Assembly (NCBI RefSeq): GCF_030408675.1
Contig: NZ_CP047200.1
Span: 1,984,001-2,048,000 of the forward strand
DNA: 64,000 bases
Source of the DNA: Corynebacterium durum
Lineage (GTDB): Bacteria > Actinomycetota > Actinomycetes > Mycobacteriales > Mycobacteriaceae
Direction: 5' to 3'
Below the pieces are notes generated by a model. That model had not been told where the DNA came from. It did no database searches and saw only the letters and a program-made list of their open reading frames with translations. The number at the start of each line of letters is the position of its first letter. Position 1 is the first letter of the stretch. The position numbers were made by a program, and so were the translations under genes. This document shows positions 20,478 through 61,925 of the stretch, piece by piece.

Positions 20478-20910
20478 CGAATGAGTCAGCCTCTAAGCCG
20501 GATTCTGTCCTCCCCGCCATGCAGCGACGGGAAGTGGTGAACATCCATCTGGACCGGCCATTACTGGCGGCCTCAAGCAGCGTACCCGCAGACTGGGCGA
20601 GCAGCCTATGTCCGCGCAGGCATACCGCAGCTGGTACGCCCTCTTGCCTTGCTCCCGGTGGGGTTTACCGAGCCGCGCCAGTCGCCTGACGCGCTGGTGC
20701 GCTTTTACCGCACCGTTTCACCCTTACCTCCTCGCGCAGGCGGGAGGCGGTTTGTTTTCTGTGGCACTATCCCGCAGGTCACCCTGGGTTGCTGTTAGCA
20801 ACCACCGTGCTCTGTGGAGTCCGGACTTTCCTCGACGCCACGTCAAACGCATAGTCACATACATGATCAATGCTGATACGTGTGCCGCGTCCACCCGACT
20901 GGCTCATTCG
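20478..20910 (-). ncRNA. rnpB: RNase P RNA
   Basis: Catalytic RNA of RNase P, which trims tRNA 5' ends. On the minus strand the CRI core reads GAGGAAAGTCCGGACTCCAC then AGAGCACGGTGGTTGCTAAC, the P-RNA hallmark, and the 3' core reads ACAGAATCCGGCTTA. Ends are set by the P1 helix: 5' CGAATGAGCCAGUC pairs with 3' GGCTGACTCATTCG apart from one mismatch. The length (~430 nt) fits actinobacterial type A. Exact termini may differ by a few bases. Confidence 0.93.
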
Positions 20911-26124: not shown

Positions 26125-26249
26125 GCGGGCAGTGTGATGGATCATGGGCTACGCAGAGCATTGAACAACGTTAGTGCAAACGGTTGCATAAAAGTATGCT
26201 TATCCCCAGGTCGCAAAACGGGGTGTTTTCGTGCTTGAGCATAAGCACA
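26125..26249 (+). repeat. Mosaic hairpin repeat, copy 1 (partial: modules E-C-A)
   Basis: Shortest of four related intergenic elements. From left: module E (GGGCAGTGTGATGGATC and ..GCATTGAACAACG), module C (GTTAGTGCAAACGGTTGC, about 26169-26187) and module A, a nested hairpin from ATGCTTAT (~26196) to ATAAGCAC (~26248). The inner part of module A is GCAAAACGGGGTGTTTTCG. Modules D and B of the larger copies are missing. It fills most of the 306-nt gap between the tyrosine phosphatase and SURF1 genes; no gene seen in the remainder. Confidence 0.85.
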
Positions 26250-26395
26250 TTGTGCAGGGTCGACCGTAACTACGGTAAAACCCCAGGTCAAGGGCCGTCT
26301 GGGCGTGCACTTCCGTAGACCACAACCCCGACAGTTCTCAGTAGCCCAACACCACCACACGCACCCTTTTCACAGGCATCCTAGAATAAGGAATC

Positions 26396-32052: not shown

Positions 32053-32100
32053 CTTAGGTTTCTAGCGGACGTGGGGATTACTTTAGGAATCTTGTGAAGT

Positions 32101-32440
32101 GTGTATACGCTCCGGTCGGGAGTGCTGGATGTTGTCAGGCTTGGCGGGTATACGCGCTGTGCAGGGGCGGGCAGTTTGACAGAGCACGCTGGCTACGCGG
32201 CTGGCGACGATCCACCAAACTGCCAAAAACCCAGGAAAAGTGGCAGTTTGATAGAGCGCGGCGAACGGGAAAGCCTTGAACACCGTTAGTGCAAACTTTT
32301 GCATAAAGATAGGTCTACTGCTGGGTGCGGAAACACCCTGTTTTCGTACCTAGCAGTGGACCTACATGACAAGCGTGAAAATATGCTTATCCCCAAGCCG
32401 CACAACACTCCATTTTCGTGCTTGACCATAAGCATATTTT
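32101..32440 (+). repeat. Mosaic hairpin repeat, copy 2 (modules D-E-E'-E-C-B-A)
   Basis: 340-nt composite between the adhesin and tRNA-Val genes. Module D at 32101-32154 is framed by GTATACGC and GGGTATACGC. Module E: GGCAGTTTG occurs forward (~32170), reversed (CAAACTGCC, ~32216) and forward again (~32242). Module C is GTTAGTGCAAACTTTTGC at 32285-32302. Module B at 32311-32363 has arms AGGTCTACTGCTGGGT / ACCTAGCAGTGGACCT and core GGAAACACCCTGTTTTCG. Module A at 32381-32438 has arms ATATGCTTAT / ATAAGCATAT. Order and orientation are the mirror of copy 3. Confidence 0.88.
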
Positions 32441-32485: not shown

Positions 32486-32520
32486 ACACAAAAGCCCCTC
32501 ACAATGAGGGGCTTTTGTGT
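32486..32520 (-). terminator. Terminator of tRNA-Val
   Basis: 16-bp perfect arms ACACAAAAGCCCCTCA / TGAGGGGCTTTTGTGT with a CAA loop. On the minus strand it follows the tRNA 3' end by 14 nt and ends in a TTTTGTGT tract, a classic intrinsic terminator. Confidence 0.85.
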
Positions 32521-32533
32521 TACACAGATCTTG

Positions 32534-32606
32534 TGCGCCCTGACGGGTTCGAACCGCCGACCTGCTGGGTGTAAACCAGCTGCTCTTCCAGCTGAGCTAA
32601 AGGCGC
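32534..32606 (-). tRNA. tRNA-Val (anticodon TAC)
   Basis: 73-nt cloverleaf on the minus strand: acceptor GCGCCTT/AGGGCGC, D stem GCTC/GAGC, anticodon stem GCTGG/CCAGC with loop TTTACAC (anticodon TAC, reading GUA), T arm with GGTTCGAAC. CCA is not encoded. A strong terminator follows. Confidence 0.95.
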
Positions 32607-53190: not shown

Positions 53191-53263
53191 CTCCCCCAAC
53201 TGGACTCGAACCAGTAACCCTTCGATTAACAGTCGAATGCTCTGCCAATTGAGCTATGGGGGA
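53191..53263 (-). tRNA. tRNA-Asn (anticodon GTT)
   Basis: 73-nt cloverleaf on the minus strand: acceptor TCCCCCA/TGGGGGA with discriminator G, anticodon stem TTCGA/TCGAA with loop CTGTTAA (anticodon GTT), T arm with GGTTCGAGTCC. CCA not encoded. Confidence 0.95.
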
Positions 53264-53395: not shown

Positions 53396-53472
53396 GGGCC
53401 TATAGCTCAGTCGGTTAGAGCCGCGGACTCATAATCCGTTGGTCGCGGGTTCGAGCCCCGCTGGGCCCACCA
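53396..53472 (+). tRNA. tRNA-Ile2 (anticodon CAT, lysidine type) or Met elongator
   Basis: 77 nt including encoded CCA. Acceptor GGGCCTA pairs with TGGGCCC, anticodon loop CTCATAA (CAT). The acceptor and variable-region sequence (GGACTCATAATCC then GTTGGTCGC) resembles bacterial tRNA-Ile2, whose C34 is modified to lysidine, more than elongator tRNA-Met (which in actinobacteria starts GGCGGGG). Identity by pattern only. Confidence 0.85.
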
Positions 53473-59091: not shown

Positions 59092-59432
59092 AAATGTGCT
59101 TATGCTCAAGCTCAAAAACACCCCGTTTTGCGACCTGAAGATAAGCAAACTTTTACCCCTGCCATATAGGTCCATCCCCAGGTACACAAACACCCCATTT
59201 TCGAACCCAGCGGTAGACCTACTTCTGCGCAAACGTTTGCACTAACGCTGTTCAAGGCTGCCACAAACGCCGCGCTCTACCAAACTGCACGTTTAACCAA
59301 GAAAAAGCGGCAGTTTGATAGACCACAAGGAGTCAACACCCAGCCGCGCTCTATCAAACTGCCCACCCCTGCAAAGTTTGTATACCGTCAAGCCCGAAAA
59401 CACCCCTTTTCGGACCGGAGCGTATACAAACT
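59092..59432 (-). repeat. Mosaic hairpin repeat, copy 3 (modules A'-B'-C'-E'-E-E'-D')
   Basis: Most complete copy, in reverse orientation to copy 2. Module A' at 59092-59155 has ATGTGCTTAT..ATAAGCAAA and core AAAACACCCCGTTTTGCG. Module B' at 59167-59221 runs TAGGTCC to AGACCTA with core ACAAACACCCCATTTTCG. Module C' contains GCGCAAACGTTTGCACTAAC. E': CTCTACCAAACTGC, GGCAGTTTGATAGACC and CTCTATCAAACTGCC. Module D' (59375-59432) has perfect 11-bp arms AGTTTGTATAC/GTATACAAACT and core GAAAACACCCCTTTTCGG. The right arm overlaps the MarR stop codon by 2 nt. About 95 bp is continuously alignable to copy 2. The rest of the 523-nt gap shows no gene. Confidence 0.9.
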
Positions 59433-59874
59433 ACACAATCCTCTTCCCCACCTGCATAAACGCCTCCCGAATATGTGCGCCATCCAACCCTGGACATTCC
59501 CCAGACTCAGACTCAGACACCTCACTCAAAAGCCTCTCTACCTCTGCCCCGAACGCCTCACTAGCGAAATCAAGCAATTCCTGTCCCTTATCGGTGATCA
59601 CGGCGAAGACGCCCCGGCCGTCGTGGGGGCAGGTGTCCCGCAGGGACAGTCCTTTTGCCTCCAACCTCCCCAAAAGCCTGGTCACAGAGCTTTGATTGAG
59701 TCCGACTTTCGCAGCGAGGTCGTTGACTCGCAGTTCGCGCGTCGGGGATTCCGCCAGGTACATCAGCGCCCAGTATTCAGTCAGGCCCACGCCGTGGTGC
59801 GTGGTGAGCCATTTGCCCAGGCGGGCGTCGATAAGCGAGGCGAATACCGACACCTCGGCCCATTTCTTCTCCAT
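59431..59874 (-). CDS. MarR-family transcriptional regulator
   Basis: 147 residues from ATG 59874 (a GTG one codon earlier is possible). Winged-helix core 'LTEYWALMYLAESPTRELRVNDLAAKVGLNQSSVTRLLGRLEAKGLSLRDTCPHDGRGVFAVITDKG' with the wing DGRGVF. Third gene of a leftward operon MFS-ArsR-MarR (6-nt gap to ArsR). May control this operon and/or the nitroreductase. Its 3' end abuts mosaic repeat copy 3. Confidence 0.88.
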   Translation of the reverse strand: MEKKWAEVSVFASLIDARLGKWLTTHHGVGLTEYWALMYLAESPTRELRVNDLAAKVGLNQSSVTRLLGRLEAKGLSLRDTCPHDGRGVFAVITDKGQELLDFASEAFGAEVERLLSEVSESESGECPGLDGAHIREAFMQVGKRIV

Positions 59875-59880
59875 CACCGA

Positions 59881-60240
59881 CTACTCGTGCGCCGGCTCGC
59901 CGGTCATTTGATGGTCGGCGTGGTTCAGTGATTCGAACACCAATCGGGTGAGGTGGCCGTCGTCAACGCGGTAGATGACGCTACGCCCCACCCGGCGCGT
60001 CTGCACCAGGCCACCGAGCCGCAGCTTGGCCAAATGCTGGCTGACCACGGTGCGCGCCACACCAGTGACCTCCACCAGTTCAGTGACGTTGCGTTCCCGT
60101 TCCGACAGCAGCCACAGAATGTGCAGGCGCGTTGGCTCTGCAAGAAGTTTCAGCGTGCCAGTGGCGGAGTCGAAAATCCCAGATTCCGCATCAATATCAT
60201 GGACGAACGATGGTTCGGTGGACTGGGGCTGGGCGCTCAT
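59881..60240 (-). CDS. ArsR/SmtB-family repressor with CzrA-like alpha-5 metal site
   Basis: 119 residues. Winged helix: 'LKLLAEPTRLHILWLLSERERNVTELVEVTGVARTVVSQHLAKLRLGGLVQTRRVGRSVIYRV'. No ELCVC alpha-3 cysteines, so not an arsenic/lead/cadmium alpha-3 sensor. The last helix has D-x-H-x10-H-x2-H ('DDGHLTRLVFESLNHADH'), with the spacing of the CzrA alpha-5 zinc/cobalt site. It should repress its own operon and release on Zn, Co or Ni (family knowledge; metal not decidable). Starts 9 nt after the MFS gene. Confidence 0.9.
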   Translation of the reverse strand: MSAQPQSTEPSFVHDIDAESGIFDSATGTLKLLAEPTRLHILWLLSERERNVTELVEVTGVARTVVSQHLAKLRLGGLVQTRRVGRSVIYRVDDGHLTRLVFESLNHADHQMTGEPAHE

Positions 60241-60249
60241 AATGTAAAA

Positions 60250-61512
60250 CTATACATCCTTATCTACATGCACCGACGGCCACACATTCGCCGCCGCGAT
60301 CAGGGCGAACCCAGCGATCAGCGCCAGCAGCAACGACGTCCACCCCAACCCAAGCGCCGCACCACACCATCCTGCCAGCGGATATGTGAGCATGTAGCAC
60401 GCGTGCGAGAGGGAAAACTGCGCGGCGAACACTGATCCAAGTTCCTCGTCAGCCACGTTGCGGCGAATCACCTGTCCCATCGGGGTCGCGAGTGCAGACA
60501 TCGACATCCCCAGCACAAACCACAGTGAGATGAACACGGGCCAGGTGGGCGCGGCGTCGATAAGCAGGAAAAGCCCCAGCAAACCCGCAACGGCGCCGCC
60601 CGCGCCGCCGAACAGCGTCACATGCAAACGCAGGTGCGGAATAAGCAGCGCCATCACAATCGACCCAGCCCCGCACGCACCGAGCAGCACCGCCACATCA
60701 GATTCGGAACGCCCCAGCTGCCCGCGCACCAGCACCACCGTGTTCACCAGCACCAGCGCCGTCGGCGCAGCCAGCGCAAGATTCAACGCCAGCACCCCAC
60801 GCAGCTCTGGGAGGCGCAGCATCGTCACCATGCCTTCCCGCACACGTCGCGACACACTTTCCCGCTTATCGACGCCCAGACTCCCCGAGCCTGCAACCAT
60901 CGTCGCCGACCCCACGAAGCCCACCGCCGCAACGGCAAATACCTGGCCACGGGACGCAAACGACAACAGCATCGCGGCCAACACGGGACTCAAAATCTGC
61001 TCAAGATCATAAGCAATGCGCGACAAAGACAAGGCCGAGGTGTACTCGTTTTGGTTATTAATGATGCGCGGAATCAGCGCCTGGAACGTGGGAGTAAACG
61101 TCGCGGCAGCCATCTGCAGAACCGCCACCGCCACGTACACCTGCGCCTCCGAGGTGATAAACGGCAAACTACACCCCACCGCTATGCGAATGATGTCGCT
61201 GCCCACCAGCACAGCCTTCACCGGGAAGCGAGCAAAAAATGCCGACAACCACGGGCCCGCACACACATAAATCAGAATCTTGATCGTGAGCGCCATCGAC
61301 ACCACCGCGCCCGCGCGGTCGCCCGCTATATCGAAGGCGAGAAGCCCAAGGCCAACGTTTAATAGGCCCGTTGCCGTCAACGCCAACACGTGGGCGGTGA
61401 AAAGGCGCCTGTAGATGGAGTTTTTCAGCGGGGTGAGAAGGGTAGTTTTTGTTTCTTGCGAGGTGTGCGTCTGGGTACTTGGTGTGTGTGATTGTGGCGT
61501 GTGCGTGGTCAT
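60250..61512 (-). CDS. MFS transporter, probable exporter
   Basis: 420 residues from ATG 61512, which follows GAGGCGCAG; upstream in-frame ATG 61545 lacks a ribosome site. Thr/Gln-rich N-terminus then about 12 helices; 'FAHVLALTATGLLNVGLGLLAFDIAGDRAGAVVSMALTIKI'-type segments and 'RREGMVTMLRLPELRG' between the halves fit the MFS_3/enterobactin-exporter-like group. Directly upstream of, and co-directional with, an ArsR metal sensor and a MarR regulator, so metal- or drug-responsive efflux is likely. Several GGCGTCGATAAGC 13-mers fall in this gene (60553, 60864). Confidence 0.87.
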   Translation of the reverse strand: MTTHTPQSHTPSTQTHTSQETKTTLLTPLKNSIYRRLFTAHVLALTATGLLNVGLGLLAFDIAGDRAGAVVSMALTIKILIYVCAGPWLSAFFARFPVKAVLVGSDIIRIAVGCSLPFITSEAQVYVAVAVLQMAAATFTPTFQALIPRIINNQNEYTSALSLSRIAYDLEQILSPVLAAMLLSFASRGQVFAVAAVGFVGSATMVAGSGSLGVDKRESVSRRVREGMVTMLRLPELRGVLALNLALAAPTALVLVNTVVLVRGQLGRSESDVAVLLGACGAGSIVMALLIPHLRLHVTLFGGAGGAVAGLLGLFLLIDAAPTWPVFISLWFVLGMSMSALATPMGQVIRRNVADEELGSVFAAQFSLSHACYMLTYPLAGWCGAALGLGWTSLLLALIAGFALIAAANVWPSVHVDKDV

Positions 61513-61568
61513 CTGCGCCTCGGTTTCGCGGCCCGTGCGTTTCATGCGGTTTATATTGCTTATGTGCG

Positions 61569-61582
61569 TAAGTGTGCACTTA
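61569..61582 (-). promoter_or_regulatory. Operator-like TAAGTG-TG-CACTTA upstream of MFS/ArsR/MarR operon
   Basis: Inverted repeat with 6-bp arms and a 2-bp centre, 57-70 nt before the chosen MFS start and next to AT-rich promoter-like DNA (AATATAAACC on the minus strand). ArsR-family sites are typically 12-2-12 or shorter palindromes of this style. Assignment to the operon's ArsR protein is inference. Confidence 0.45.
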
Positions 61583-61685
61583 TGTGATGATTGTAGGCTT
61601 ACCTTCAATGTCACACAAGGGGCGGGCGCATGGCAGGGGTGCATACTACGTGCTGGGGTTTCGCGATAATTGCAACACACCCTGC

Positions 61686-61925
61686 GAAGTGTGCTTATAC
61701 TCAAGCACGACAACGGGGTGTTTTGCGGCTTGGAGATAAGCACACTTCACGATTGTCATCTAGGTCCACCGCGAGGCACGAAAACAGGGCGTTTCCGTAC
61801 CTGGCAGTAGACCTTTTTCTATGCAAATCTTTGCACTAACGTTGTTCAATGCCCGCCCTGCAAAATGTGCTTACGCCCAAGCCCAAAAACACCCCGTTTT
61901 GCGGCTTGAAGATAAGCATATTTCA
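61686..61925 (-). repeat. Mosaic hairpin repeat, copy 4 (modules A'-B'-C'-A')
   Basis: Between the MFS and dgt genes. First module A' has perfect 13-bp arms GAAGTGTGCTTAT (61686-61698) / ATAAGCACACTTC (61736-61748) and its core is in the opposite sense (ACAACGGGGTGTTTTGCGG). Module B' (61761-61815) runs TAGGTCCACC to AGTAGACCTT. C' is TGCAAATCTTTGCACTAACG followed by TTGTTCAATGCCCGCC, a truncated E'. A second A' (about 61864-61924) has core AAAACACCCCGTTTTGCGG. D is absent. The rest of the 440-nt gap is promoter DNA of the MFS gene. Confidence 0.88.

What the first reader, a model, noticed from the sequence alone, without database searches (positions are those of the whole stretch)
59092..59432. 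A new-looking mosaic repeat family: different outer hairpins with one shared inner stem-loop
Four intergenic elements (26125-26249, 32101-32440, 59092-59432, 61686-61925) are assembled from the same set of modules A, B, C, D, E. Modules A, B and D are each a nested hairpin with its own outer arms (A: TGTGCTTAT/ATAAGCACA; B: AGGTCTACTGC/GCAGTAGACCT; D: AGTTTGTATAC/GTATACAAACT), but all three enclose one shared core, CGAAAAC-ACCCY-GTTTTCG. Arms vary by compensating changes, suggesting selection for base-pairing. A shared core inside module-specific stems looks like a set of recognition sites for a common protein or RNA with different address labels. No known family (REP/BIME, ERIC, attC, CRISPR) that I know fits.
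Basis: partly seen in the sequence, partly recalled or inferred. Interest (0 to 1): 0.88.

Follow-up and report, generated by a model that had tools for sequence, protein, structure and literature searches.

The report
Mosaic hairpin repeats behind Corynebacterium genes
One Corynebacterium species carries its own many-copy family of mosaic hairpin repeats that sit just behind genes and share one inner hairpin wrapped in different outer stems; it resembles known bacterial repeat families, but what copies it and what it does are not known.

Summary
The four elements are real and belong to a dispersed family: 57 sites in the fetched parts of this 2.79-Mb Corynebacterium genome, with 51 A, 34 B, 32 C, 13 D, 14 E and 6 F modules. 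The longest copies are colinear A-B-C-E-D, about 341 bp. A, B and D do share one inner stem-loop. No copy was found in the other genus genomes searched.

Compensating change is strong only in A's outer arm; A's middle stem and B show none. On the transcribed strand G·U and A·C mismatches are about equal overall (108 v 94), though A alone leans to G·U (63 v 42, p 0.05), so selection on the RNA is not shown. Elements crowd behind stop codons: 22 of 53 gaps convergent against 10 of 132 controls; 30 of 49 within 30 nt of a stop, about 15 expected.

Best reading: a BOX/REP-like non-autonomous repeat family kept at DNA level and tolerated at gene 3' ends. No RAYT gene, target duplication, plasmid or phage copy was found. 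Movement is unproven. A similar hairpin design with other arms forms a private family in genome G080.

The parts
26128..26147 (.). E remnant of the first element
   Evidence: profile match
26161..26190 (-). module C
   Evidence: profile match
26193..26251 (-). module A hairpin, G-rich loop on the + strand
   Evidence: profile match; fold z -1.9
32098..32155 (+). module D, degenerate hairpin at the left end of the full-length element
   Evidence: profile match, (right edge approximate); fold z -0.55
32170..32262 (-). module E (three inverted copies of a TCTATCAAACTGCC-like arm)
   Evidence: profile matches
32275..32305 (-). module C
   Evidence: profile match
32311..32364 (-). module B hairpin
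   Evidence: profile match; fold z -10.5
32380..32438 (-). module A hairpin
   Evidence: profile match; fold z -5.1
59093..59151 (+). module A hairpin at the left end of the full-length element
   Evidence: profile match; fold z -2.8
59168..59221 (-). module B hairpin
   Evidence: profile match; fold z -1.1
59229..59256 (+). module C, palindrome GCAAACGTTTGC followed by CACTAACG-GTTCAAG
   Evidence: profile match; pattern
59269..59363 (+). module E
   Evidence: profile matches; inverted repeats I3, I4
59375..59432 (-). module D hairpin, right end of the element, abutting the stop of the MarR gene (59431-59877, -)
   Evidence: profile match; fold z -6.5; sequence
61688..61746 (+). module A hairpin, G-rich loop
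   Evidence: profile match; fold z -7.1
61761..61814 (+). module B hairpin
   Evidence: profile match; fold z -3.3
61820..61849 (+). module C
   Evidence: profile match
61864..61922 (+). second module A hairpin, C-rich loop
   Evidence: profile match; fold z -5.9

Best explanation
A species-private, non-autonomous family of dispersed palindromic repeats, of the same broad kind as pneumococcal BOX or enterobacterial BIME/ERIC elements. The fullest unit is about 340 bp (A-B-C-E-D, sometimes with F in front), with A and an inverted A-like hairpin D as its two ends. Truncation and re-joining gave the shorter mosaics and solo A hairpins. Copies persist where they do least harm, just behind stop codons and between convergent genes. 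Pairing of A's outer arms is kept or restored mainly at the DNA level: as a cruciform or single-strand hairpin, as a two-fold symmetric protein site, or by self-templated correction of the palindrome. Shown: the family, colinearity of long copies, location, absence from the other genus genomes searched, covariation confined to A's outer arm. Inferred: that copies spread by transposition-like copying in trans, that pairing is a DNA-level matter, and which DNA-level process it is.
For: 57 dispersed sites, long copies colinear; A and D inverted to each other at 7 of the 10 sites that hold both (my tally); strong placement behind stops and avoidance of divergent gaps; loop found in both orientations with fixed arms, as template switching or cruciform processing would leave; covariation in A's outer arm only; G·U and A·C mismatches about equal on the transcribed strand, 108 v 94 over 50 modules, 32 v 33 in outer arms; no copies by DNA search in 200 other genus genomes.
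Against: No target-site duplication at 19 A/D-ended sites; no mobilising enzyme identified; no strain comparison, so no empty site seen; copies are mostly 69-87% identical to the query, so recent movement is not evident. A modules taken alone lean to G·U (63 v 42, p 0.05), which would fit RNA-level selection.
Confidence: 0.55

Rival explanations
1. The hairpins work in RNA: bidirectional transcription terminators or 3'-end mRNA protectors, spread and kept because they are useful behind genes.
For: 30 of 49 sites with a facing stop lie within 30 nt of it; 22 of 53 gaps convergent. Only 1 of 42 gene ends within 60 nt of an element has a T-run terminator starting within 80 nt, against 17 of 103 controls. 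A solo A fills the gap between two convergent stops at 143451-143508. A modules lean to G·U on the transcribed strand, 63 v 42. A's outer arm covaries.
Against: No overall G·U excess, 108 v 94, and none in the outer arms, 32 v 33. B does not covary. No T-run behind the hairpins by eye; ordinary terminators stand beside the element at seven sites. The terminator contrast is partly trivial, because the element fills the space behind the stop.
Confidence: 0.3
2. Sites for chromosome organisation or for a sequence-specific DNA-binding regulator (two-fold symmetric sites, the C palindrome included), with no mobility.
For: C is well conserved: 8 of the 16 forward matches listed (35 in all) are exact. 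Site density is uneven, 18 of 57 in one eighth of the chromosome (chi-square p 8e-5).
Against: Copies hug stops, not promoters. Clustering of neighbouring sites is not significant (P 0.06). Truncated mosaics and up to 30% divergence suit decaying repeats better.
Confidence: 0.08
3. REP elements mobilised by a RAYT (Y1 transposase) in the same genome.
For: Palindromic intergenic repeats behind genes, as REPs are (PMC3733652, passages); B carries GGTAGACC at one foot.
Against: No PF01797 match in the genome while 5 of 14 control genomes ring; A and D lack a GTAG or CGTC foot.
Confidence: 0.03

Closest known systems
BOX elements of Streptococcus pneumoniae (PMC3049150)
   Same: Intergenic mosaics of about 50-nt modules in varied combinations, solo modules, over-represented between convergent genes, mobiliser unknown (section 6 and passages read).
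   Different: Other sequence and genus; BOX varies by boxB copy number, here the modules are mostly truncations of one colinear unit; here modules share one inner hairpin inside different arms.
REP/BIME elements (PMC3733652)
   Same: Palindromic, dispersed, mostly behind genes in convergent and same-direction gaps (passages).
   Different: REP units are 20-40 bp with a GTAG or CGTC foot; here hairpins are 53-59 nt, the tip and not the foot is shared, and no Y1 transposase gene was found.
Bacterial MITEs such as ERIC, RUP, Correia/NEMIS (PMC2229807)
   Same: Under 400 bp, no protein coded as far as seen, long stem-loops, inverted ends (passages).
   Different: No target-site duplication detected; no matching IS found (not searched beyond PF01797).
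Stem-loop families Cod-1, Cod-3, Cod-5 of Corynebacterium diphtheriae (PMC2267715)
   Same: Stem-loop repeat families in the same genus: Cod-1 140 nt, 17 copies, intergenic; Cod-3 170 nt, 23 copies; Cod-5 74 nt, 35 copies, intergenic (passages).
   Different: Cannot be told: their sequences were not in the passages read.

Membership tests
BOX-like mosaic repeats | Several distinct modules joined in varied combinations in intergenic DNA | tested here: met
BOX-like mosaic repeats | Over-representation between convergent genes | tested here: met
   22 of 53 v 10 of 132 gaps
BOX-like mosaic repeats | Sequence homology to boxA, boxB, boxC | not tested
   no BOX sequence was fetched
REP/RAYT | Y1 transposase (RAYT) in the genome | tested here: not met
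   PF01797
REP/RAYT | GTAG or CGTC at the foot of the hairpin | tested here: not met
   absent from A and D; a GTAG occurs in one arm of B only
MITE | Terminal inverted repeats | tested here: met
   A and D inverted at 7 of 10 sites with both; many copies lack one end
MITE | Target-site duplication | tested here: not met
   19 sites with A or D at both ends, no excess of matching flanks; old copies could have lost it
MITE | Ends matching a transposon of the same host | not tested
   transposases other than PF01797 were not searched; and looked only between close copies
Intrinsic terminator | Stem followed by a T-run | tested here: not met
   scans find a T-run terminator inside an element at one site (172018) only; scan criteria were my own
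Structured non-coding RNA | Covariation of pairs and G·U tolerance on the transcribed strand | tested here: inconclusive
   A outer arm covaries, A middle and B do not; G·U v A·C 108 v 94 overall, A alone 63 v 42
Structured non-coding RNA | Match to an Rfam family | tested here: not met
   no Rfam match over the elements at gathering scores
attC / CRISPR | Integron integrase or Cas genes with array structure | not tested
   no integrase or cas search was made; copies are dispersed, not arrayed

The most novel reading that the evidence does not exclude
Corynebacterium species carry a general class of tip-addressed palindromes. A trans-acting factor reads the inner A4-loop-T4 hairpin on extruded or single-stranded DNA and copies or maintains any palindrome that bears it, so each species evolves private outer arms around one conserved tip (here the A, B and D arms; other arms in G080, G148 and G137).
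Probability: 0.12. Interest if true: 0.75.

Novelty: new variant of a known kind. Interest (0 to 1): 0.45.

Why it matters
Mosaic palindromic repeats are common in bacteria, but the enzyme that spreads most of them is unknown, and I found few described for Corynebacterium. A family with one shared hairpin tip and different arms, with a separate private family of similar design in at least one other species, offers a clean test of whether the tip is what is recognised. The split result, covariation in one arm only and no clear RNA signature, warns that pairing in bacterial repeats need not mean a working RNA.

Tried and rejected
RAYT link: no PF01797 match in the own genome. Autonomous partner: the span between close A copies at 34-36 kb holds a MocR-like regulator (recognised by eye), and that between two B copies at 2137-2139 kb a 323-aa ORF without Pfam match; other transposase families were not searched. 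Plasmid or phage carriage: no match. Exact 16-17-base words in viral contigs gave 26 and 8 stretches; no module match beyond the words themselves at E 0.01, taken as chance. Target-site duplication: none. Tip as a general mark of long hairpins in this genome: 0 of 11 other intergenic and 0 of 20 genic hairpins in the fetched sequence carry it. An insertion that cut the MarR gene short: rejected, its two closest full-length relatives end at the same residues. A genome-contig scan with the MarR protein found one distant record and was of no use.

Limits. The first covariation count mixed A with D and looked better than A alone. Covariation used 43 A/D and 29 B modules, near full length and at least 25 bits in the first scan; later counted 51 A, 13 D and 34 B, and the rest were not added. 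The loop count used 34 of 37 A modules (3 with gaps left out); for four the arms give little or no support for the orientation. Four of 57 sites were left out of the gap test because no two called genes bracketed them. Genes were called by my own codon script, not checked by annotation. One search scored at most 3 candidates a genome, and searches used stricter filters, so weak copies elsewhere could be missed.

Full report
Observation. A DNA search of the own genome with 59092-59432 gives 62 matches at about 40 places by my grouping, 69-94% identical outside itself. Profile scans of the window plus 50 fetched stretches find 57 sites with 51 A, 34 B, 32 C, 13 D, 14 E and 6 F modules. This is a lower bound, since only regions with prior hits were fetched; a pattern search finds 35 C places in the whole chromosome. 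The genus is Corynebacterium: nearly all named relatives listed for a window protein are Corynebacterium, the nearest named one 73% identical. No call names the species.

Anatomy. The longest copies (672733, 2016098, 2043093 and 2061207 in genome coordinates) are colinear A-B-C-E-D; shorter ones look like truncations or re-joinings. An alignment of 15 of the longer copies is most conserved over A, B and C (mean 0.74-0.87), weaker over E and D (0.46-0.58, several copies lack them), and fades outside. D is an A-like hairpin with a different outer arm; at 7 of the 10 sites with both, A and D are inverted to each other (my tally). Several copies lack B, with A joined straight to C. A, B and D share an inner stem-loop with A-rich and T-rich runs around a GC-rich loop. 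The loop stands in either orientation while the arms keep theirs: 14 G-rich, 16 C-rich, 4 neither. By my tally, 12 of 14 G-rich but only 3 or 4 of 16 C-rich loops sit in copies where A is followed by B, so the inversion seems to follow sub-lineages and not to be constant flipping. Inversion of a palindrome centre is what template switching or cruciform processing would leave (recalled knowledge).

Is pairing selected? On 43 A/D modules the covariation score is 0.175 against 0.134 in shuffles (0 of 500 reach it); slid structures reach 0.108 at most. On 29 B modules it is below shuffles, 0.136 against 0.159 (496 of 500 shuffles as high), and one slid structure reaches 0.124. With D removed, the outer 11 pairs of A covary strongly (double changes 311 v 123, 0 of 2000), all A pairs together weakly (478 v 381, p 0.06) and the middle stem not at all (93 v 159). 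Shuffles do not control for relatedness. The G080 family shows a weak excess (0.125 v 0.093, 22 of 500). On the strand transcribed from the one neighbouring gene whose stop faces the site within 150 nt, 50 modules contain 108 G·U and 94 A·C mismatches (p 0.36), and 32 v 33 in the outer arms; split by module, A gives 63 v 42 (p 0.05), B 40 v 44, D 5 v 8. Selection on an RNA hairpin should favour G·U, a DNA-level process should not. The sum fits the latter; A alone leaves the former open. Fold energies of single modules are mixed; whole elements at 59092 and 32098 fold better than shuffles (z -3.7 and -4.5).

Where the elements lie. With my own codon-based gene caller, 53 of 57 sites lie in gaps bracketed by two called genes: 22 convergent, 27 same-direction, 4 divergent. 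132 control gaps of at least 60 nt from the same stretches give 10, 73 and 49 (Fisher p 2e-7 for convergent, 3e-5 for divergent). In same-direction gaps the median distance is 23 nt to the stop and 240 nt to the start; 23 of 27 are closer to the stop. 30 of 49 sites with a facing stop lie within 30 nt of it, against 15.1 expected from random placement in the same gaps (maximum 24 in 5000 runs). Avoidance of promoters explains part of this: with the 150 nt before starts forbidden, the median relative position in 19 gaps is still 0.18 (mean 0.29) (all). Only 1 of 42 gene ends within 60 nt of an element has a T-run terminator starting within 80 nt, against 17 of 103 controls, but the element itself fills that space. 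At 59430-59433 the edge of D forms part of the TAG stop of the MarR gene; its two closest full-length relatives end at the same residues, so the element abuts a natural end.

Elsewhere. The composite is found in 1 of 201 genus genomes, its own, by DNA search with few candidates scored. The C motif with up to 3 mismatches occurs in 40 of 241 other genus genomes, at most three times each, and the reversed control motif in about 28 by my count of the listing, so near chance. R1, the A/D covariance model, hits 9 of 242 genus genomes including the own one. G080 is the clear case (best 1.7e-7); it has 11 copies of its own palindrome with arms AGTGGACAAGCTCAGATCGG, found in no other of 242 genomes at E 0.001. 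G148 has a third set with arms near AAGTTGGCC, and the four core-pattern hits of G137 are all nested hairpins near gene ends, each with its own arms. G056, G305 and G167 share one orthologous-looking hairpin. With 242 genomes searched, the hits of G099, G301, G167, G056, G305, G055 and G052 (E 4e-5 to 0.008 for one genome) are marginal. Most bare core-pattern hits looked at are not nested hairpins. So a genus-wide class is a lead, not a result.

Mobility and mechanism. No target-site duplication at 19 A/D-ended sites, no RAYT, no plasmid or phage copy; no strain comparison was possible. Spread by an enzyme in trans is inferred from dispersal, inverted ends and truncated copies, by analogy with BOX and MITEs. 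Which DNA-level process keeps A's outer arm paired is open.

Literature. The listings of searches, seen in part where long, show no paper on such a family in Corynebacterium; they cover open-licence PubMed Central only. PMC2267715 (passages and section 10) lists C. diphtheriae families Cod-1 (140 nt, 17 copies), Cod-3 (170 nt, 23) and Cod-5 (74 nt, 35); sequences not compared. PMC3049150 (section 6 and passages) gives the BOX comparison; PMC3733652 and PMC2229807 (passages) give REPs and MITEs; PMC8355165 was seen only in a search listing with the start of its abstract; PMC11109978 (passages) mentions Corynebacterium riboswitch and uORF candidates, and the passages seen do not describe this family.

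Verdict. A real family, undescribed as far as searched, of the BOX/REP-like kind, with the unusual build of one shared tip inside different arms.

Noticed in passing
window 20478-20906 (-), 32534-32606 (-), 53191-53263 (-), 53396-53469 (+): RNase P class A RNA and three tRNA genes (Rfam); by eye an ordinary terminator stands at about 32488-32522, between the tRNA and the second element.
   Followed up: no
window 59430-59433: The outer edge of module D forms part of the TAG stop codon of the MarR gene (59431-59877, -); the protein's C-terminus is the same in its closest full-length relatives.
   Followed up: yes
window 59229-59242 and other C modules: The C palindrome TGCAAA-NN-TTTGCA equals the outermost arms seen at some A hairpins (TGCAAAGT...ACTTTGCA), as if C were such a hairpin with its interior lost.
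   Followed up: no
window 59431-61743: MarR, ArsR and MFS transporter genes in a row on the minus strand (Pfam), between two of the elements; the MFS reading frame starts too early, its domain begins about 100 residues in.
   Followed up: no
L124 about 2050-2730 (G148): Four tandem units about 215 bp apart, each with the nested hairpin of G148.
   Followed up: no
L049, L178, L179 (G056, G305, G167): A nested hairpin with arms like ACGTTTCGATCAAATAG and the same core, apparently behind the same gene in three species: a conserved single-copy hairpin at a gene end.
   Followed up: partly
whole chromosome G000:C1: Sites are unevenly spread, 18 of 57 in one eighth (2.09-2.44 Mb), chi-square p 8e-5.
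   Followed up: partly
L120 1873-1921 (G080): A further long palindrome with other arms (GGACATGG...CCATGTCC), 85 bp from a family copy.
   Followed up: no
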